This document shows positions 1-59,635 of a DNA stretch of 64,000 nucleotides, piece by piece. The translations under genes and the position numbers were made by a program. The stretch is from Thermoplasmata archaeon (lineage in GTDB: Archaea; Thermoplasmatota; Thermoplasmata; Thermoplasmatales; Thermoplasmataceae): assembly GCA_021797735.1 (NCBI GenBank), contig JAJZZE010000055.1, positions 1 through 64,000 of the forward strand. Direction: 5' to 3'. The first letter of the stretch is position 1, and each line of letters begins with the position of its first letter. The notes under the pieces are model-generated. The model was not told the DNA's origin. It saw only the letters and a program-made list of their open reading frames with translations, and searched no databases.

Positions 1-8
1 GCACATAA

Positions 9-365
9 ACCATAATCAACTCCCCCAATTTTAACCTGTCTGTCACTTCAATACATATATTAATTCATAAAGCTACATTATTTCTCAAAAACTGGAAACT
101 ATTCTGTAAGACATGCGGAGAGTCTGAGAATACAAATAATAATATTAAGAATATAGAAATAAATAAAACAAATGCCATATCAATAGATGCAAATTGGTGG
201 TGTGTTCTTGCACTTATAGGATATATCGGAGCTTGGATTGTTCAAATAATTAGTGCACTTGGTATACCTGCAACACTTGGCTTGTTAGCAGGAGCGTGGT
301 TATTTTCCCTTTTTATGCTAAGTACTGTTGTATTAGCTGGAGTTGCACACGCATGCGAGTGGTAA
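9..365 (+). CDS. Small hydrophobic peptide, copy 1 (putative bacteriocin-like precursor); no ATG/GTG/TTG start found in frame, so possibly 5'-truncated or decayed
   Basis: Open frame after TAA at 6-8 to TAA at 363-365, read as ...ENTNNNIKNIEINKTNAISIDANWWCVLALIGYIGAWIVQIISALGIPATLGLLAGAWLFSLFMLSTVVLAGVAHACEW*. Homologous to the 810..1070 ORF. Not in the supplied ORF track. Confidence 0.5.
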   Translation, partial: TIINSPNFNLSVTSIHILIHKATLFLKNWKLFCKTCGESENTNNNIKNIEINKTNAISIDANWWCVLALIGYIGAWIVQIISALGIPATLGLLAGAWLFSLFMLSTVVLAGVAHACEW

Positions 366-366
366 A

Positions 367-813
367 ATGGTAAATAATATATCTTTAAATATAAATTTAA
401 AAACAGAATATAAAAAATTAAGATTATTTACAATATTAATGATACTGGAAGCTGAAATGCCCACAATTTTAATTATAGATCCATATAATAATATATACTG
501 GAAAGTACTTTCATCACTGCTATATATACCGGCCATAATTAGTGTTATTTCATACAAATATAATAAAAATCTAATAAAATATAGAATCTATAAATATAAT
601 AATATAAGCTATAAAAATGCTATAAAATATAGGACAATGTATCTTATTATACCCGCTATAATATATTTTATAATATCGCCATTAATCTTTATAATAACAA
701 AAAATACCCTCTATTTTACACTGTATGAAATAATTGGGTTTATTATATTTATATTGGATGAACTAATAATAAATAAGAGAGTTATAAAATCTCAACAGGG
801 GCTACAGCAATGA
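367..813 (+). CDS. Small integral membrane protein (about 4 TM), partner of peptide copy 1; putative immunity protein
   Basis: ORF 343..813; ATG at 367 lies 1 nt after the stop of the upstream peptide; hydrophobic segments; its stop overlaps the next ATG (ATGA at 810-813). Confidence 0.6.
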   Translation: MVNNISLNINLKTEYKKLRLFTILMILEAEMPTILIIDPYNNIYWKVLSSLLYIPAIISVISYKYNKNLIKYRIYKYNNISYKNAIKYRTMYLIIPAIIYFIISPLIFIITKNTLYFTLYEIIGFIIFILDELIINKRVIKSQQGLQQ

Positions 814-1070
814 ATAATATGCTTAAGGATACAAATAAGAATATTAAGAATATAGAAATAAATCATACTGAATCAATAATAATAGACTACAGTTTCATGT
901 GTATATATAGCATTATAGTGACCCTGGTTAGCGCATTGGGCATGGCACTATCTGTAGCAGCCGCAATAGGATCCTTTGGGTCAGTAACACCAGCAGCTGC
1001 ATGGGGATTCTTTTTCAGTTTAATCTCTTTTGGCCTGGGTATAGCAGAAATAGCTGCAGCATGCAGGTGA
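810..1070 (+). CDS. Small hydrophobic peptide, copy 2 (putative bacteriocin-like precursor, polar leader + Cys...Cys hydrophobic core)
   Basis: 86 aa; leader NKNIKNIEI shared with copy 1; core C-x53-C ending AAACR. Confidence 0.65.
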   Translation: MNNMLKDTNKNIKNIEINHTESIIIDYSFMCIYSIIVTLVSALGMALSVAAAIGSFGSVTPAAAWGFFFSLISFGLGIAEIAAACR

Positions 1071-1075
1071 TAAAT

Positions 1076-1513
1076 ATGAAAAGAGAAAAATTTATGTATT
1101 ATTTATGGGTAATGCAAACTATTACTTTCGGATTTGTGTTGATAATGTCTGTTATTATATTTCTTGTTTCCAATAAAGCAATATTAAAAGCTATCTATTC
1201 AGTAATTATAATTATGGATTCCCTGTTTTTACCTGTGTTAGTTATATATGTTATGAAATTTAAAGAGATACGCCCAAAAGAAATGGCAATTAACAACGTT
1301 TTAAAAAATGATAACAATTATAAAAAATACATACATTATGTATACATTCTAGGTTTATTTATTTTATTATCTGATATACTGAGTGTAATTTTGGGGCATT
1401 ATTATATCCCAATTTTAGTGCTTGCAATATCAATGCCGGTAATGGTAACAATATATTATAAAATATTTGTAATAATACTCAGGGAATTGCATTTATTGAA
1501 CAAAACATCATAA
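1076..1513 (+). CDS. Small integral membrane protein (about 4 TM), partner of peptide copy 2
   Basis: ORF 1001..1513; likely ATG at 1076 (MKREKFMYYLWVMQ...), 5 nt after the peptide 2 stop. Confidence 0.6.
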   Translation: MKREKFMYYLWVMQTITFGFVLIMSVIIFLVSNKAILKAIYSVIIIMDSLFLPVLVIYVMKFKEIRPKEMAINNVLKNDNNYKKYIHYVYILGLFILLSDILSVILGHYYIPILVLAISMPVMVTIYYKIFVIILRELHLLNKTS

Positions 1514-1591
1514 ATTTAAAATAAAATCATTCATTAACGATTAATAATGGCTATAGATTAAATATAATATATTATTCTTTAATATAGTCTT

Positions 1592-3814: not shown

Positions 3815-4363
3815 TTAAATTTTATTGAAATATACTCTTTTAAAATTCCATCTTTTATTCATATCAGATCTTCTCCCTATTAATATATGATTAATTTTAA
3901 CCTCCTTATCTATATTAAAATTCTTTAAATCATTCATTATGTTATTTAGCCTATTTCCATCAACATTTTTTCTAACAAGGCTAAAATGCGGAACAAATTC
4001 ATCATTTATAAATGCGTTTTTGCCCAGGGCAATGTTCAGTTTTTTATGAAAAATTATTAATTCCTTAGATGGGATAACATTTATGTAAACAATGTAATAT
4101 TTTTTATCATTTTTTGTTTTCTCAAAATAATCTATATTACCTATTTTCACTGTTAATTCCTTTGTTTCATTACAAACTTTAATTATTTTATCTATACACA
4201 GTTTATTATAATTTTTTAAATATAGCAGAGTTATATGAACTCCTTTATTGCTTAATGTTCCGGTGTAGCCATATTTATTCTCTAATTTCTTTTTCATGTA
4301 TGTAATTTTATCTCTTATATTTTTATCCGGTTTTATTATTACAGTGTAGTACATTGATACCAT
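3815..4363 (-). CDS. thpR: 2'-5' RNA ligase / 2H phosphoesterase family (ThpR-like)
   Basis: Two H-x-S/T-L motifs: VHITLLYL and PHFSLVRK. Confidence 0.75.
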   Translation of the reverse strand: MVSMYYTVIIKPDKNIRDKITYMKKKLENKYGYTGTLSNKGVHITLLYLKNYNKLCIDKIIKVCNETKELTVKIGNIDYFEKTKNDKKYYIVYINVIPSKELIIFHKKLNIALGKNAFINDEFVPHFSLVRKNVDGNRLNNIMNDLKNFNIDKEVKINHILIGRRSDMNKRWNFKRVYFNKI

Positions 4364-4723
4364 CTATGAAATATATTTCATATGCGATATCATTTAAAAA
4401 TTTTATTATTTATCATAAATACTGAAAAATCCGTTACTGTTTTATTTATGACCTACCCGTTTCAGATATTTAGACCTCAATATTTGTGATCTCTTAAAAA
4501 TATCCCTAATTTTAATGGCATTATATGCCGTACCATGGTAAAATAATAAATAGCATACTAACACTTTAAAGTAGAAAATGAATACGGGTCCCGTAAAATT
4601 ATGCTTATATAATCGGACCCACATTAACGTGCTTCAGAACCCAAGATTAAATATTAATTCCGGCGATAAGCTAATATTTATATTATTGTTTACAATACGT
4701 TTAGAAAGTGAAGGAGGATTAAT

Positions 4724-5284
4724 ATGGAAAACAGTTATGTAAAATTTGAAGCTCCCGAATCGTTAGAAAAAGAAGTGTTAGACTTTGTTGAAAATTCTTA
4801 CAGATCCGGAAAGATAAAGAAAGGAACAAATGAAGTAGTAAAATCAATAGAGAGAGGAGAAGCCAAACTGGTTATTATCTCAGAAGATGTCTCACCACCG
4901 GATGTTGTGTTTTATTTGCCAACATTGTGTGAGGAAAGAAAGATTCCCTATGCATATGTAAAAAACAAAAAAGATCTTGGAGTTAAGGTAGGAATAGCTT
5001 CTGCTGCATCACTTTCAATTACGGATTATGGAAAAAATGAAGATGCATATAAATCCATAATATCCGGACTAAATGATGTAAAATCTGGTAAGGAAGACAA
5101 GAAAGCAGAAAAGAAACCTGAAAAGGAAGAGAAACCTAAGGAAGAGAAGAAGGAAGAAAAACCGAAAGAAGAGAAACCTAAGGAAGAGAAAAAAGAATCA
5201 AAATCCGGAGAAAAGAAACCGAAAAAAACCAAGAAAGCAGAAAAGAAGGAAGAAGCACCCGCAGAAGAAACTGATGAGGAGTGA
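4724..5284 (+). CDS. rpl7ae: Ribosomal protein L7Ae with a long Lys/Glu-rich C-terminal extension
   Basis: KKGTNEVVKSIERGEAKLVIISEDVSPPDVVFYLPTLCEERKIPYAYVKNKKDLG core; K/E/P-rich tail; ggagg at about 4712. Confidence 0.93.
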   Translation: MENSYVKFEAPESLEKEVLDFVENSYRSGKIKKGTNEVVKSIERGEAKLVIISEDVSPPDVVFYLPTLCEERKIPYAYVKNKKDLGVKVGIASAASLSITDYGKNEDAYKSIISGLNDVKSGKEDKKAEKKPEKEEKPKEEKKEEKPKEEKPKEEKKESKSGEKKPKKTKKAEKKEEAPAEETDEE

Positions 5285-5289
5285 TGTAG

Positions 5290-5499
5290 ATGGCAGATGA
5301 AGCAACTCCAGCAGAAGTTGTTGAATTAATGGGAAGAACAGGTATGACTGGCGAGGCCACAACAGTAAAGGTAAGAGTACTGGCAGGTAAAGATCAGGGT
5401 AGGATAATAGCAAGGAATGTACTCGGTCCTGTTACCGTAGGAGACATACTTATGTTGAGGGAGACAGCAAGGGAAGCAAGAAGATTATCAATAAGGTGA
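5290..5499 (+). CDS. rps28e: Ribosomal protein S28e
   Basis: [57 protein letters not shown]. Confidence 0.95.
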
Positions 5500-5504
5500 T
5501 ATAA

Positions 5505-5702
5505 ATGGAGAATAGAAAATGTACTTTTTGTGGACATGACATTGAACCGGCATCGGGAATAATATATGTGAGGAAAGATGGTGCTGTTTTAAATTTCTGT
5601 TCAAAGAAATGCAAGGTTAATATGATACAGTTAAAACGTGCCGCAAGAAACATAAAATGGACAAACGAATATCATAGAATAAAGGAAATGAGAAAGGCAT
5701 GA
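5505..5702 (+). CDS. rpl24e: Ribosomal protein L24e
   Basis: [31 protein letters not shown] zinc-ribbon. Confidence 0.95.
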
Positions 5703-5707
5703 TATAA

Positions 5708-6127
5708 ATGGAAAGAACATTAATACTCATAAAACCTGATGGTGTCAAAAGAAAATTAATCGGTAATGTAATTTCCCGGTTTGAAAATAAGGGTTTGAAA
5801 TTAATCGCAATGAAACTCATGACTGTTACAGAAGAACAGGCAAAAAAACACTATAGTGTACACAGTTTAAAACCTTTCTTCGATGGTCTGGTTTCCTATC
5901 TTATTTCCGGTTCTATCGTGGCAATGATTTTCGAAGGTGACAATGCAATAACATCCTGCAGAAATATATGCGGAACTACAGACGGATCAAAGGCAAGCCC
6001 CGGAACAATAAGGGGAGATTTTTCATTGAACATTGAGGAAAATATAGTTCATGCTTCCGATTCAGACGAATCATTTAATCATGAATACCCAATATTTTTT
6101 AACAATAATGAAATACTGAATCATTGA
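5708..6127 (+). CDS. ndk: Nucleoside diphosphate kinase
   Basis: ERTLILIKPDGVKRKLIG; GTTDGSKASPGTIRGDFS; NIVHASDSDE. Confidence 0.96.
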   Translation: MERTLILIKPDGVKRKLIGNVISRFENKGLKLIAMKLMTVTEEQAKKHYSVHSLKPFFDGLVSYLISGSIVAMIFEGDNAITSCRNICGTTDGSKASPGTIRGDFSLNIEENIVHASDSDESFNHEYPIFFNNNEILNH

Positions 6128-6129
6128 TT

Positions 6130-7872
6130 ATGGAAACCACAAAGAAAGATTTAAGGGAGCCTATCGTATGCGTCCTTGGCCATGTTGACCATGGAAAAAC
6201 CACACTATTAGATGATATTAGAGGTACTGCATATGCTAAAAGGGAAATAGGGGGCATAACGCAGAAAATAGGTGCAACCGATATAGATAAAACAACATTG
6301 AAAAAAAACATTGAGAAATATTTTAAAGATACACCAATAAAAATTCCCGGATTATTATTTATAGACACTCCCGGGCATGTTGCATTTTCAAACATGCGTG
6401 CAATGGGGGGTGCACTGGCCGATATAGCTATTTTAGTAATAGATATAAATGAGGGTTTAAAGCCCCAGACAATAGAATCATTAAACATTTTAAAAAAATA
6501 CAAAACACCCTTTATAATTGCTGCAAATAAAATGGATTTAATACCATATTTTACAGGTGGCAAAAACGATTCATTTTCTAACGTATTTAAGTATCAGAGA
6601 CAGGAATATAAGGATGAGTTGGATAATAGAATTTACAAGATAATAAACGATTTATATATGCAGGGTATTTCATCGGATAGATATGATAGAATAACGGATT
6701 TTACAAAATCATTTGCAATAGTTCCTGTAAGTGCAAAACTGAATATAGGAATGCCCGATATTTTAATGGTTTTAACGGGTCTGGCACAGCATTTTCTTGA
6801 AAAGAACATACAGTTTGAGGAAAAAAATACAAGGGGTTCTGTAATCGAGGTAAAAAAGGAAGGGTCACTTGGGACTACTTTAGATACAATATTATATCAG
6901 GGCACCCTGAATAGAGGGGATACAATAGCATTGAATACAATAGAAGGCCCAAAAACAACAAGAATAAAGGCATTATTAATAGCAGGGAAAAAAGGCCTTG
7001 TAGAAAAAGATAGTGTTAAGGCTGCATCTGGCATAAGGATATTAATCACGGATAAACTGGATGTAATATCTGGCACCTCAATAATAAAGATAAATAATAG
7101 TAATATAACGGATGCATATAATGAACTTATTAAGGAATCAAAGCCCGATATAAAATTATCCGAAAATGGTGTTACCATTAAGGCCGAGGCTATTGGATCA
7201 CTTGAAGCAATAGCATATGAGCTGGAGCAGAATAAAATTAATATAAGATCTGCTGAAATAGGTGATATAACAAAAAAGGATATAGTGAATATATCAACAT
7301 TAAACAATCCACTGGATCAGGTTATAGTAGGTTTTAATGTAAATTTATCAAGCGATGCAAAAGATGCTATAGAAACATATAGTGCAATGGCAATAACAGG
7401 CAATGTAATATACTCTATAATAGAGGATCTTGATAAGTGGTTAAAGTTTAAAAAGAATGAAATGGAAGAGGAGAAGAAAAATAGTATGCCGATACCATCA
7501 AAGTTTACCATAATGCCTGATTATATATTCAGGGCTGCCAAACCTGTAATAGTGGGCATAAAAATATTATCAGGCAGGGTTAAGGTAGGTGATAAATTAG
7601 TAAATAGCAATAATAAATATGCAGGTACAGTTCAGAGCTTAAGGGACGGGGATATAAACAAGCAATTTGGGGATAAAGGATCAGAATTATCCTGTGCCAT
7701 AGCGGGAGTTATCCTGAACAGGCACATATTTGCAAATGATGAATTATATGTGGATGTTCCTGAAAATGTTGTAAAGGAATTAAAGGATCAGGATCTGGAC
7801 CCTGATATAAAAGAAACTATGAATGAATTAATAAAAATAAAGAGAAAGGATAACCAGTTCTGGGGATTTTAG
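6130..7872 (+). CDS. infB: Translation initiation factor aIF5B (IF-2 family)
   Basis: VLGHVDHGKTTLLDDIRGT G1; DTPGH G3; NKMDL G4; follows ndk as in other archaea. Confidence 0.95.
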   Translation: METTKKDLREPIVCVLGHVDHGKTTLLDDIRGTAYAKREIGGITQKIGATDIDKTTLKKNIEKYFKDTPIKIPGLLFIDTPGHVAFSNMRAMGGALADIAILVIDINEGLKPQTIESLNILKKYKTPFIIAANKMDLIPYFTGGKNDSFSNVFKYQRQEYKDELDNRIYKIINDLYMQGISSDRYDRITDFTKSFAIVPVSAKLNIGMPDILMVLTGLAQHFLEKNIQFEEKNTRGSVIEVKKEGSLGTTLDTILYQGTLNRGDTIALNTIEGPKTTRIKALLIAGKKGLVEKDSVKAASGIRILITDKLDVISGTSIIKINNSNITDAYNELIKESKPDIKLSENGVTIKAEAIGSLEAIAYELEQNKINIRSAEIGDITKKDIVNISTLNNPLDQVIVGFNVNLSSDAKDAIETYSAMAITGNVIYSIIEDLDKWLKFKKNEMEEEKKNSMPIPSKFTIMPDYIFRAAKPVIVGIKILSGRVKVGDKLVNSNNKYAGTVQSLRDGDINKQFGDKGSELSCAIAGVILNRHIFANDELYVDVPENVVKELKDQDLDPDIKETMNELIKIKRKDNQFWGF

Positions 7873-58791: not shown

Positions 58792-59370
58792 AGCTAATTA
58801 ATGCATTATTAATTTAAAATCTTTTCTATTTTATAATGAATAAAATAAATGTTTATGGAATAAGAAAGAATATTTTTATAGTGTATTAAATTTGCTATAA
58901 AATTAAAAAGATCATGCACAATTAAGTTTGAAAGAGGTGATAAACGCGCATGGCTGATCAGGTGTAATAGAAAAAGCAATAAGTAGTTTTGAGGGAAAAA
59001 TATAATAGAGTGGTTTCTAAACATGGTCATCAGTATATTACCCATATTAGATTAACTGTAGGGAATATGAAGGACATGAACTGTTGGAAACCCGATAAAA
59101 TTCTTAACATGTAGGTGATTTATATAATATGTGGCAAGTTTGCACAACTATGAATTATTACAGAGATGTTTTTTTACTGCTATATAGATAAACAAGAGGG
59201 AAAGACATAATAACATTTGTCCACAATATGTAAATAAAAAGAATTTAAATATAAAAAGTATAATTTATGCATAAAATGATAATATAAATGTTACATAGTA
59301 GTAGATAAAATGTCTGAATGCCGCTATCTCTGTTAACTATATAGTAATATATCTACAATAATATTTTTAT

Positions 59371-59400
59371 ATTATATTATATTATATTATATTATATTAT
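59371..59400. repeat. (ATTAT)6 pentanucleotide tandem repeat
   Basis: attatattatattatattatattatattat, preceded by a further partial unit; last AT forms the first two bases of ATG at 59399. Confidence 0.9.
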
Positions 59401-59635
59401 GAAAGGAAATAATATAATAATAGCAATATCAATAGCGGCGGTTATCATGTTTATAACCTGGGATTGTGCATTTAATGAATAGACCGTTGCACGTTTCTAT
59501 GGGGAACTGGGAGCAAAGGTTGGAGCATCATACAGTGGTTTTGGAGTGAGCGCATATTATCCAGTCATAACAAGCTACCTGACACCTGAATATCATAAGA
59601 CATTCATGCCACATTATCAACCTCCATGGTATTGA
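59399..59635 (+). pseudogene. Small secreted/membrane protein ORF interrupted by an in-frame TAG
   Basis: MKGNNIIIAISIAAVIMFITWDCAFNE*TVARFYGELGAKVGASYSGFGVSAYYPVITSYLTPEYHKTFMPHYQPPWY*; TAG at 59480-59482. Confidence 0.5.

What the first reader, a model, noticed from the sequence alone, without database searches (positions are those of the whole stretch)
9..1513. Tandem [small Cys-x50-53-Cys hydrophobic peptide + four-helix membrane protein] modules: candidate archaeal bacteriocin/immunity cassette
Seen directly: two copies of a two-gene unit. Peptide 1 (…NIKNIEINKTNAISID-ANWWC…HACEW) is followed 1 nt later by a membrane protein. Peptide 2 (…NIKNIEINHTESIIID-YSFMC…AAACR) is followed 5 nt later by a second membrane protein. 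The middle junction is an overlapping ATGA (810-813), implying translational coupling. Both peptides have a short polar N-terminal leader and a Gly/Ala-rich hydrophobic core bracketed by two Cys (50 and 53 intervening residues), including a similar AGAW.FSL / AAAWGFFFSL segment. Inference: leader + hydrophobic core + membrane partner is the standard architecture of peptide bacteriocins with immunity proteins. The Cys pair could form a disulfide, or a ring in a RiPP-like product. I recognise no described Thermoplasmatales family with this layout.
Basis: partly seen in the sequence, partly recalled or inferred. Interest (0 to 1): 0.85.

Follow-up and report, generated by a model that had tools for sequence, protein, structure and literature searches.

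The report
Swappable archaeal toxin–immunity gene cassettes
The two small peptide genes are not independent bacteriocins but detached tail pieces of a ~300-residue secreted precursor found in Ferroplasma and relatives, each still linked to its own membrane partner gene, and they appear to be shuffled between loci by recombination much as bacteria swap the toxin ends of Rhs/CDI weapons.

Summary
Window 127-1513 holds two orphan cassettes, each made of linker, Cys-x50-53-Cys hydrophobic domain and membrane protein. They are 3' fragments of a ~308-residue precursor with an N-terminal hydrophobic signal, an intact copy of which lies elsewhere in this Ferroplasma genome. Peptide 1 has no usable start codon; a repeated IS-like end occupies window 1-126. 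The ATG of peptide 2 is an internal Met of the precursor. Compared with a close relative, the window is a mosaic: 127-835 is 94% identical to a cassette at the relative's gcvH locus. 806-1560 is 95% identical to its rnz locus, where the same tail still ends a full-length precursor. The switch lies inside the conserved linker. Across 43 tail/partner pairs, tail and partner identities correlate (r=0.63, 0/5000 permutations), while linkers within a genome are homogenised (83% versus 31% for tails). Best explanation: a polymorphic secreted membrane toxin with cognate membrane immunity proteins, diversified by recombination at the linker. Toxicity is inferred, not shown. No Pfam, NCBIfam, PHROG, PADLOC or PDB family matches. 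Promoters carry an (ATATT)n repeat confined to this family, suggesting phase variation. Novelty: new variant of a known kind, with no homology to known members.

The parts
1..126 (.). End of a multi-copy repeat, probably an insertion sequence (terminal ..GACATGCGGAGAGTCTG), that interrupts the precursor just before cassette 1
   Evidence: Copies at C56:1, C36 end, C56:11244 in the own genome and in G007; homology to the precursor family begins at 127
127..365 (+). Orphan toxin cassette 1: linker remnant plus hydrophobic C-terminal domain, Cys at 201-203 and 354-356 (x50); no start codon
367..813 (+). Putative immunity protein 1 (148 aa, about 4 TM by hydropathy); same partner type in three other species' loci
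   Evidence: 59-90% identity when toxin is 71-95% identical; dN/dS 0.19-0.33
801..863 (+). Conserved linker DNA where the sequence switches from the gcvH-locus cassette type to the native rnz-locus type (recombination junction)
810..1070 (+). Orphan toxin cassette 2: linker remnant plus hydrophobic C-terminal domain, Cys at 900-902 and 1062-1064 (x53); full-length at the same locus in relative G007
1076..1513 (+). Putative immunity protein 2 (145 aa, about 4 TM by hydropathy), 97% identical to the partner at the rnz locus of G007
59367..59482 (+). Relic of another precursor locus: (TTATA)6.8 repeat abutting ATG (59399) and a 27-aa signal-peptide remnant MKGNNIIIAISIAAVIMFITWDCAFNE*

Best explanation
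The window holds two orphan toxin/immunity cassettes of a polymorphic, secreted, bacteriocin-like system of Ferroplasma and relatives. SHOWN by sequence: the complete gene encodes a ~308-aa precursor (hydrophobic N-terminal signal, Asn-rich pro-region, conserved linker of about 60 aa, then a hypervariable hydrophobic domain of about 50-60 aa bracketed by two invariant Cys) followed directly by a cognate small membrane protein of 2-4 predicted TM. Extra truncated linker-toxin-partner cassettes lie downstream or elsewhere, and whole toxin+partner units have moved between loci with junctions in the linker. INFERRED: the precursor is exported; the C-terminal domain is released or presented, possibly closed by a disulfide, and inserts into the membrane of competing cells lacking the matching partner protein, which acts as immunity. 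Orphan cassettes would keep immunity to former or foreign toxins and would be a recombination reservoir for switching the expressed toxin. At the window's rnz locus a foreign cassette (toxin 1 + immunity 1) recombined in front of the native toxin 2, displacing it, and an IS-like element later cut off the upstream part.
For: Intact 308-aa copy C37:107334-108257 and 11 matches in the own genome. Alignment of 13 full-length copies: conserved N-terminal ~250 aa, hypervariable end, invariant C254 and C308. Mosaic of the window against two G007 loci, 94% and 95% identity, switch within 801-863. The same displacement pattern at the arg locus: G007 carries ..VYHDGNNCFGGW on a full-length precursor, while own contig C55 has a new toxin+partner ahead of it (the C10-C55 join is inferred from synteny). 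Toxin and partner identities correlate, r=0.63, 0/5000 permutations. Same-genome linker 83%, toxin 31%, partner 27% identity; linker DNA identical over up to 199 nt. Purifying selection on toxins and partners. Family restricted and patchy: 18/117 genomes of the order.
Against: No toxicity, secretion or immunity assay exists. No homology to any known toxin or immunity family, so 'toxin' rests on architecture and evolution only. The signal peptide and TM counts are from hydropathy, not a dedicated predictor. AlphaFold was uninformative (pLDDT 39). Assemblies break at these repeats, so some cassette orders could be mis-assembled; the arrangement (a full-length copy plus two cassettes) is nevertheless present in the single-contig genome G005. 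Several full-length copies are damaged (IS in Fer1, frameshifts in Acidiplasma).
Confidence: 0.75

Rival explanations
1. Stand-alone peptide bacteriocins with leader peptides and immunity proteins: each small ORF is expressed and exported by itself.
For: Peptide 2 has an ATG and overlaps the upstream gene; some orphan cassettes elsewhere start with an in-frame ATG at MK(T/N)LINS.
Against: Peptide 1 has no start codon. Both are 3' fragments of a longer precursor. The same toxin 2 is part of a full-length precursor at the orthologous locus. No export signal is present in the fragments.
Confidence: 0.08
2. A self-recognition or surface-antigen system: the variable hydrophobic end anchors a secreted or surface protein and the partner is a matching receptor or membrane subunit, diversified by cassette exchange without killing.
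For: Variable end co-inherited with a specific membrane partner; N-terminal pro-region conserved; a distant version carries PKD/Ig-like repeats in its N-terminal part.
Against: Accumulated orphan cassettes keeping partner genes, including one lone partner without its toxin (L057 reverse strand 7444-7674), resemble immunity retention rather than antigen storage. IS and frameshift inactivation of precursors with intact partners fits a dispensable costly toxin.
Confidence: 0.13
3. Decayed remnants without current function, a repeat family kept by gene conversion or carried by mobile elements.
For: Repeats, an IS end, truncated and frameshifted copies.
Against: dN/dS 0.16-0.33 for toxin 1 (more distant pairs) and immunity 1 and 0.21 for immunity 2; both Cys kept in all 14 full-length copies compared; no relatives in viral, phage or plasmid collections.
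Confidence: 0.04

Closest known systems
CDI/Rhs orphan toxin-immunity modules (cdiA-CT/cdiI, rhs-CT/rhsI; PMC3150448, PMC3967940)
   Same: Long conserved delivery part, swappable C-terminal domain with an adjacent specific partner, fragments downstream without start or export signal, exchange between loci by recombination in shared sequence.
   Different: No homology to CdiA, Rhs or MafB. Precursor only ~308 aa with a simple N-terminal hydrophobic signal. Toxin part is a ~55-aa hydrophobic Cys-x(n)-Cys domain rather than an enzyme. Archaeal, in cells without an outer membrane.
Polymorphic ionophore CdiA-CT toxins (PMC11630599)
   Same: Polymorphic membrane-spanning toxins with highly polymorphic cognate immunity proteins (only ~30% identity within a group).
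   Different: Those are five-helix bundles delivered by CdiA through the outer membrane; here about two hydrophobic segments and no CdiA.
T6SS effector/immunity arrays of Vibrio cholerae (PMC5361080)
   Same: Sequential displacement leaves arrays of older partner (immunity) genes.
   Different: Here the displaced toxin domain often survives too; no secretion machine genes are present.
Halocin C8 family (TIGR04449)
   Same: Archaeal secreted precursor with a short toxic peptide cleaved from it (as summarised in PMC8628083).
   Different: No profile match in this genome; two rather than many Cys; immunity would be a separate gene.
SdpC/SdpI of Bacillus (TIGR04032)
   Same: Secreted precursor, hydrophobic C-terminal toxin with a Cys pair, separate membrane immunity protein (own knowledge).
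   Different: No profile match; no SdpAB-like neighbours; Cys spacing 42-62 versus a few residues; polymorphic cassettes.
Sulfolobus SSV toxins (SSV9 B310, SSV1 a291; PMC8628083, PMC13431529)
   Same: About 300-aa archaeal secreted toxin with a fast-evolving body and a small TM neighbour gene.
   Different: Virus-encoded, predicted hydrolase-like fold, conserved only at the signal peptide; no sequence match to phage or virus records here.

Membership tests
Polymorphic toxin systems (sense of PMC3482391) | Conserved N-terminal trafficking part with variable C-terminal domain | tested here: met
   Alignment of 13 full-length copies; linker 83% versus toxin 31% within genomes
Polymorphic toxin systems (sense of PMC3482391) | Stand-alone cassettes recombining with the full gene | tested here: met
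   Window mosaic against G007 loci; orphan arrays in several genomes
Polymorphic toxin systems (sense of PMC3482391) | Adjacent cognate immunity gene | tested here: met
   Adjacent ORF co-inherited with toxin type, Mantel 0/5000; protective function itself untested
Polymorphic toxin systems (sense of PMC3482391) | Toxic activity of the C-terminal domain | not testable with these tools
   Needs expression or killing assays
Polymorphic toxin systems (sense of PMC3482391) | Secretion signal on the full-length protein | tested here: inconclusive
   Hydrophobic N-terminal stretch after M(K/R)(R/Q) in full-length copies; no signal-peptide predictor available
Halocin C8 family | Match to the halocin C8 domain model | tested here: not met
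   TIGR04449 finds nothing in the genome
SdpC family | Match to the toxin_SdpC model | tested here: not met
   TIGR04032 finds nothing in the genome
CDI / Rhs / Maf | Homologous N-terminal delivery domain | tested here: not met
   No Pfam or NCBIfam match near cut-off for the precursor or cassettes
Fusellovirus (SSV) secreted toxins | Sequence relationship to virus-encoded toxins | tested here: not met
   No hits in IMG/VR, phage records or PHROGs

The most novel reading that the evidence does not exclude
A new family of archaeal membrane-active polymorphic toxins in which whole toxin+immunity cassettes are swapped into the expressed precursor through a homogenised linker, and whose expression is phase-varied. 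In Ferroplasma an (ATATT)n repeat lies between an archaeal TATA-like box and the start codon; in Acidiplasma an A-tract lies in the coding sequence. This would be a contingency-locus weapon in archaea.
Probability: 0.45. Interest if true: 0.87.

Novelty: new variant of a known kind. Interest (0 to 1): 0.76.

Why it matters
Few archaeal polymorphic toxin systems are described, and this family has no match in any family library searched. It comes with natural recombination snapshots between close relatives, more than 40 toxin/partner pairs for testing specificity, and repeat-controlled promoters. Kin discrimination and warfare among wall-less acidophiles, where a membrane leak at pH near 1 should be lethal, become directly testable with cultured Ferroplasma and Acidiplasma.

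Tried and rejected
Family libraries (Pfam, NCBIfam, PHROGs, PADLOC) and a profile search of the PDB gave nothing above noise. Viral, phage and plasmid origin found no support. Translational coupling through ATGA was set aside because the overlap lies at a recombination junction. Loss of Cys 1 in some orphans (4 of 29 scored, plus frameshifted ones) against none of 14 full-length copies is suggestive but statistically weak. Makarova et al. 2019 (mBio 00715-19), the key survey of archaeal toxins, is not held in the library, so I could not check whether it lists this family. Literature searches for Ferroplasma or Acidiplasma toxin/immunity systems found none.

Full report
OBSERVATION. The four ORFs exist as described: an open frame at 9-365, a membrane ORF at 367-813, an 86-aa ORF at 810-1070 and a membrane ORF at 1076-1513, with gaps of 1 nt and 5 nt, the ATGA overlap, and Cys spacings of 50 and 53. 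Two details change the reading. The first frame has no ATG, GTG or TTG, and window 1-126 is the end of a repeat with 95-98% identical copies at other contig ends. The second 'start' ATG lies inside a longer homologous region.

WHAT IT IS. A search of the own genome (Ferroplasma; the same genus as F. acidarmanus Fer1) with peptide 2 found eight matches. One of them (C37:107334-108257) is the end of a 308-aa protein with a hydrophobic N-terminus, and this protein finds 11 places in the genome. Two of these are N-terminal halves that run off contig ends (C10, C48). Two contigs (C55, C39) begin inside the pro-region, so the assembly breaks in this repeat. Thirteen full-length proteins from eight genomes align over their length. 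They share a conserved N-terminal ~250 residues, including a linker that begins near 'MKTLINSIELIS' and runs to 'TNNNIKN..IN.T..I.ID'. After that comes a hypervariable hydrophobic domain with invariant Cys254 and Cys308. Most cassettes and full-length genes are followed within about -40 to +25 nt by a small membrane ORF of roughly 60-160 aa. The window's two peptides correspond to the last ~78-86 residues of such proteins.

RECOMBINATION. DNA comparison with the close relative G007 (windowed scores) shows a clean mosaic. Window 127-835 is 94% identical to a cassette at G007's gcvH locus (toxin ..AGVAHACGW plus its partner). Window 806-1560 is 95% identical to G007's rnz locus, where the ..AAACR toxin ends a full-length precursor next to the same rnz gene. 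The switch falls inside the ~60-nt conserved linker. Own contig C4 matches the DNA upstream of the rnz precursor in G007 (94%) and stops at the precursor start. The window's rnz locus is therefore native, with a foreign cassette inserted ahead of the native toxin. The arg locus shows the same thing: in G007 ..VYHDGNNCFGGW is on the full-length gene, while own contig C55 has another toxin and partner in front of it (the C10-C55 join is inferred from synteny).

PAIRING AND SELECTION. Among 43 toxin/partner pairs from 10 genomes, toxin identity predicts partner identity (r=0.63; 0 of 5000 permutations, maximum 0.16). Pairs with toxin identity of at least 45% have median partner identity 0.50, against 0.25 when toxins are below 30%. 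The pairs include orthologous copies, so part of the correlation reflects relatedness. Exceptions exist: toxins of 45-55% identity sometimes have unrelated partners. Within genomes the linker is homogenised (median 83% aa, toxin 31%, partner 27%), whereas between genomes the linker is 57%. Linker DNA has identical runs up to 199 nt. dN/dS is 0.16-0.19 for toxin 1 and immunity 1 against G004, 0.21 for immunity 2 and 0.65 for toxin 2 against G007 (few substitutions).

DISTRIBUTION. Profile search: 18 of 117 genomes of the order, all in one family, including 9 of 10 Ferroplasma and all 3 genomes of g18 (probably Acidiplasma). In a phylum sample of 395 genomes only one further family had a match. 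One distant version (L129) has a 474-aa protein with PKD/Ig-like repeats in its N-terminal part (my reading of the sequence, not a profile hit), a similar linker and a Cys..Cys hydrophobic end followed by a 136-aa ORF.

MECHANISM. Shown: precursor-plus-partner organisation, orphan cassettes, exchange at the linker. Inferred: export by the N-terminal signal, action of the Cys-bracketed hydrophobic end on the membrane of competitors, neutralisation by the membrane partner, orphan partners retained for immunity. Ferroplasma cells lack a wall (established knowledge), so a hydrophobic peptide can reach the membrane directly, and a leak at pH near 1 would be lethal. No dedicated transporter or maturase recurs at the loci.

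EXPRESSION CONTROL. In Ferroplasma copies of the own genome and G007 a TTTATATA box is followed by (ATATT)n directly abutting the ATG, n = 4-7 between loci, giving box-to-ATG distances of 25, 30, 35 or 40 nt. In the whole own genome (ATATT)4 or more occurs at five places only: four are precursor promoters (C4, C10, C37, C48) and the fifth, window 59367-59400, precedes a signal-peptide relic of the same family. In g18 genomes an A-tract near codon 45 has lengths that put some copies in frame and others +1. Both patterns suggest phase variation but could partly reflect decay or sequencing error.

KNOWN SYSTEMS. It works most like CDI/Rhs orphan modules and V. cholerae effector displacement (PMC3150448, PMC3967940, PMC5361080) but is homologous to none of them. 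Halocin C8 and SdpC models do not match. I rate it a new variant of a known kind. The main limits are the absence of functional data, the failed structure prediction, draft assemblies, and the fact that the 2019 archaeal toxin survey could not be read.

Noticed in passing
window 59367-59482: (TTATA)6.8 repeat abutting an ATG and a 27-codon relic of the precursor's signal peptide; the repeat occurs only at this gene family's promoters in the genome.
   Followed up: yes
L051, L052, L056, L057, L059, L060, L082 upstream of the precursor start: (ATATT)n between a TTTATATA box and the ATG varies in 5-nt steps (box-to-ATG 25-40 nt), a candidate phase-variable archaeal promoter.
   Followed up: partly
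L069:4403, L120:4675, L121:4386, L122(-):2562, L123(-):3483, L124:4096: A-tract near codon 45 in g18 (probably Acidiplasma) copies: two copies in frame, four +1, a possible contingency or frameshift site.
   Followed up: partly
L067 (Fer1, reverse strand 3921-7559): In F. acidarmanus Fer1 the precursor is split by an inserted stretch with two ORFs, one probably a transposase; the same locus is intact in G003.
   Followed up: partly
L129:3575-4999: Distant homologue with PKD/Ig-like repeats in the N-terminal part, a similar linker and a Cys-bracketed hydrophobic end plus 136-aa downstream ORF.
   Followed up: no
window 1-126; C56:1, C36:49644-49770, C56:11244-11379: Multi-copy repeat end terminating in GCGGAGAGTCTG, probably an insertion sequence whose body is missing from the draft assembly.
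   Followed up: partly
L053:1414-1665: A deletion product in which the linker is fused directly to ..DAGNVCFGGW, a likely recombination scar.
   Followed up: no
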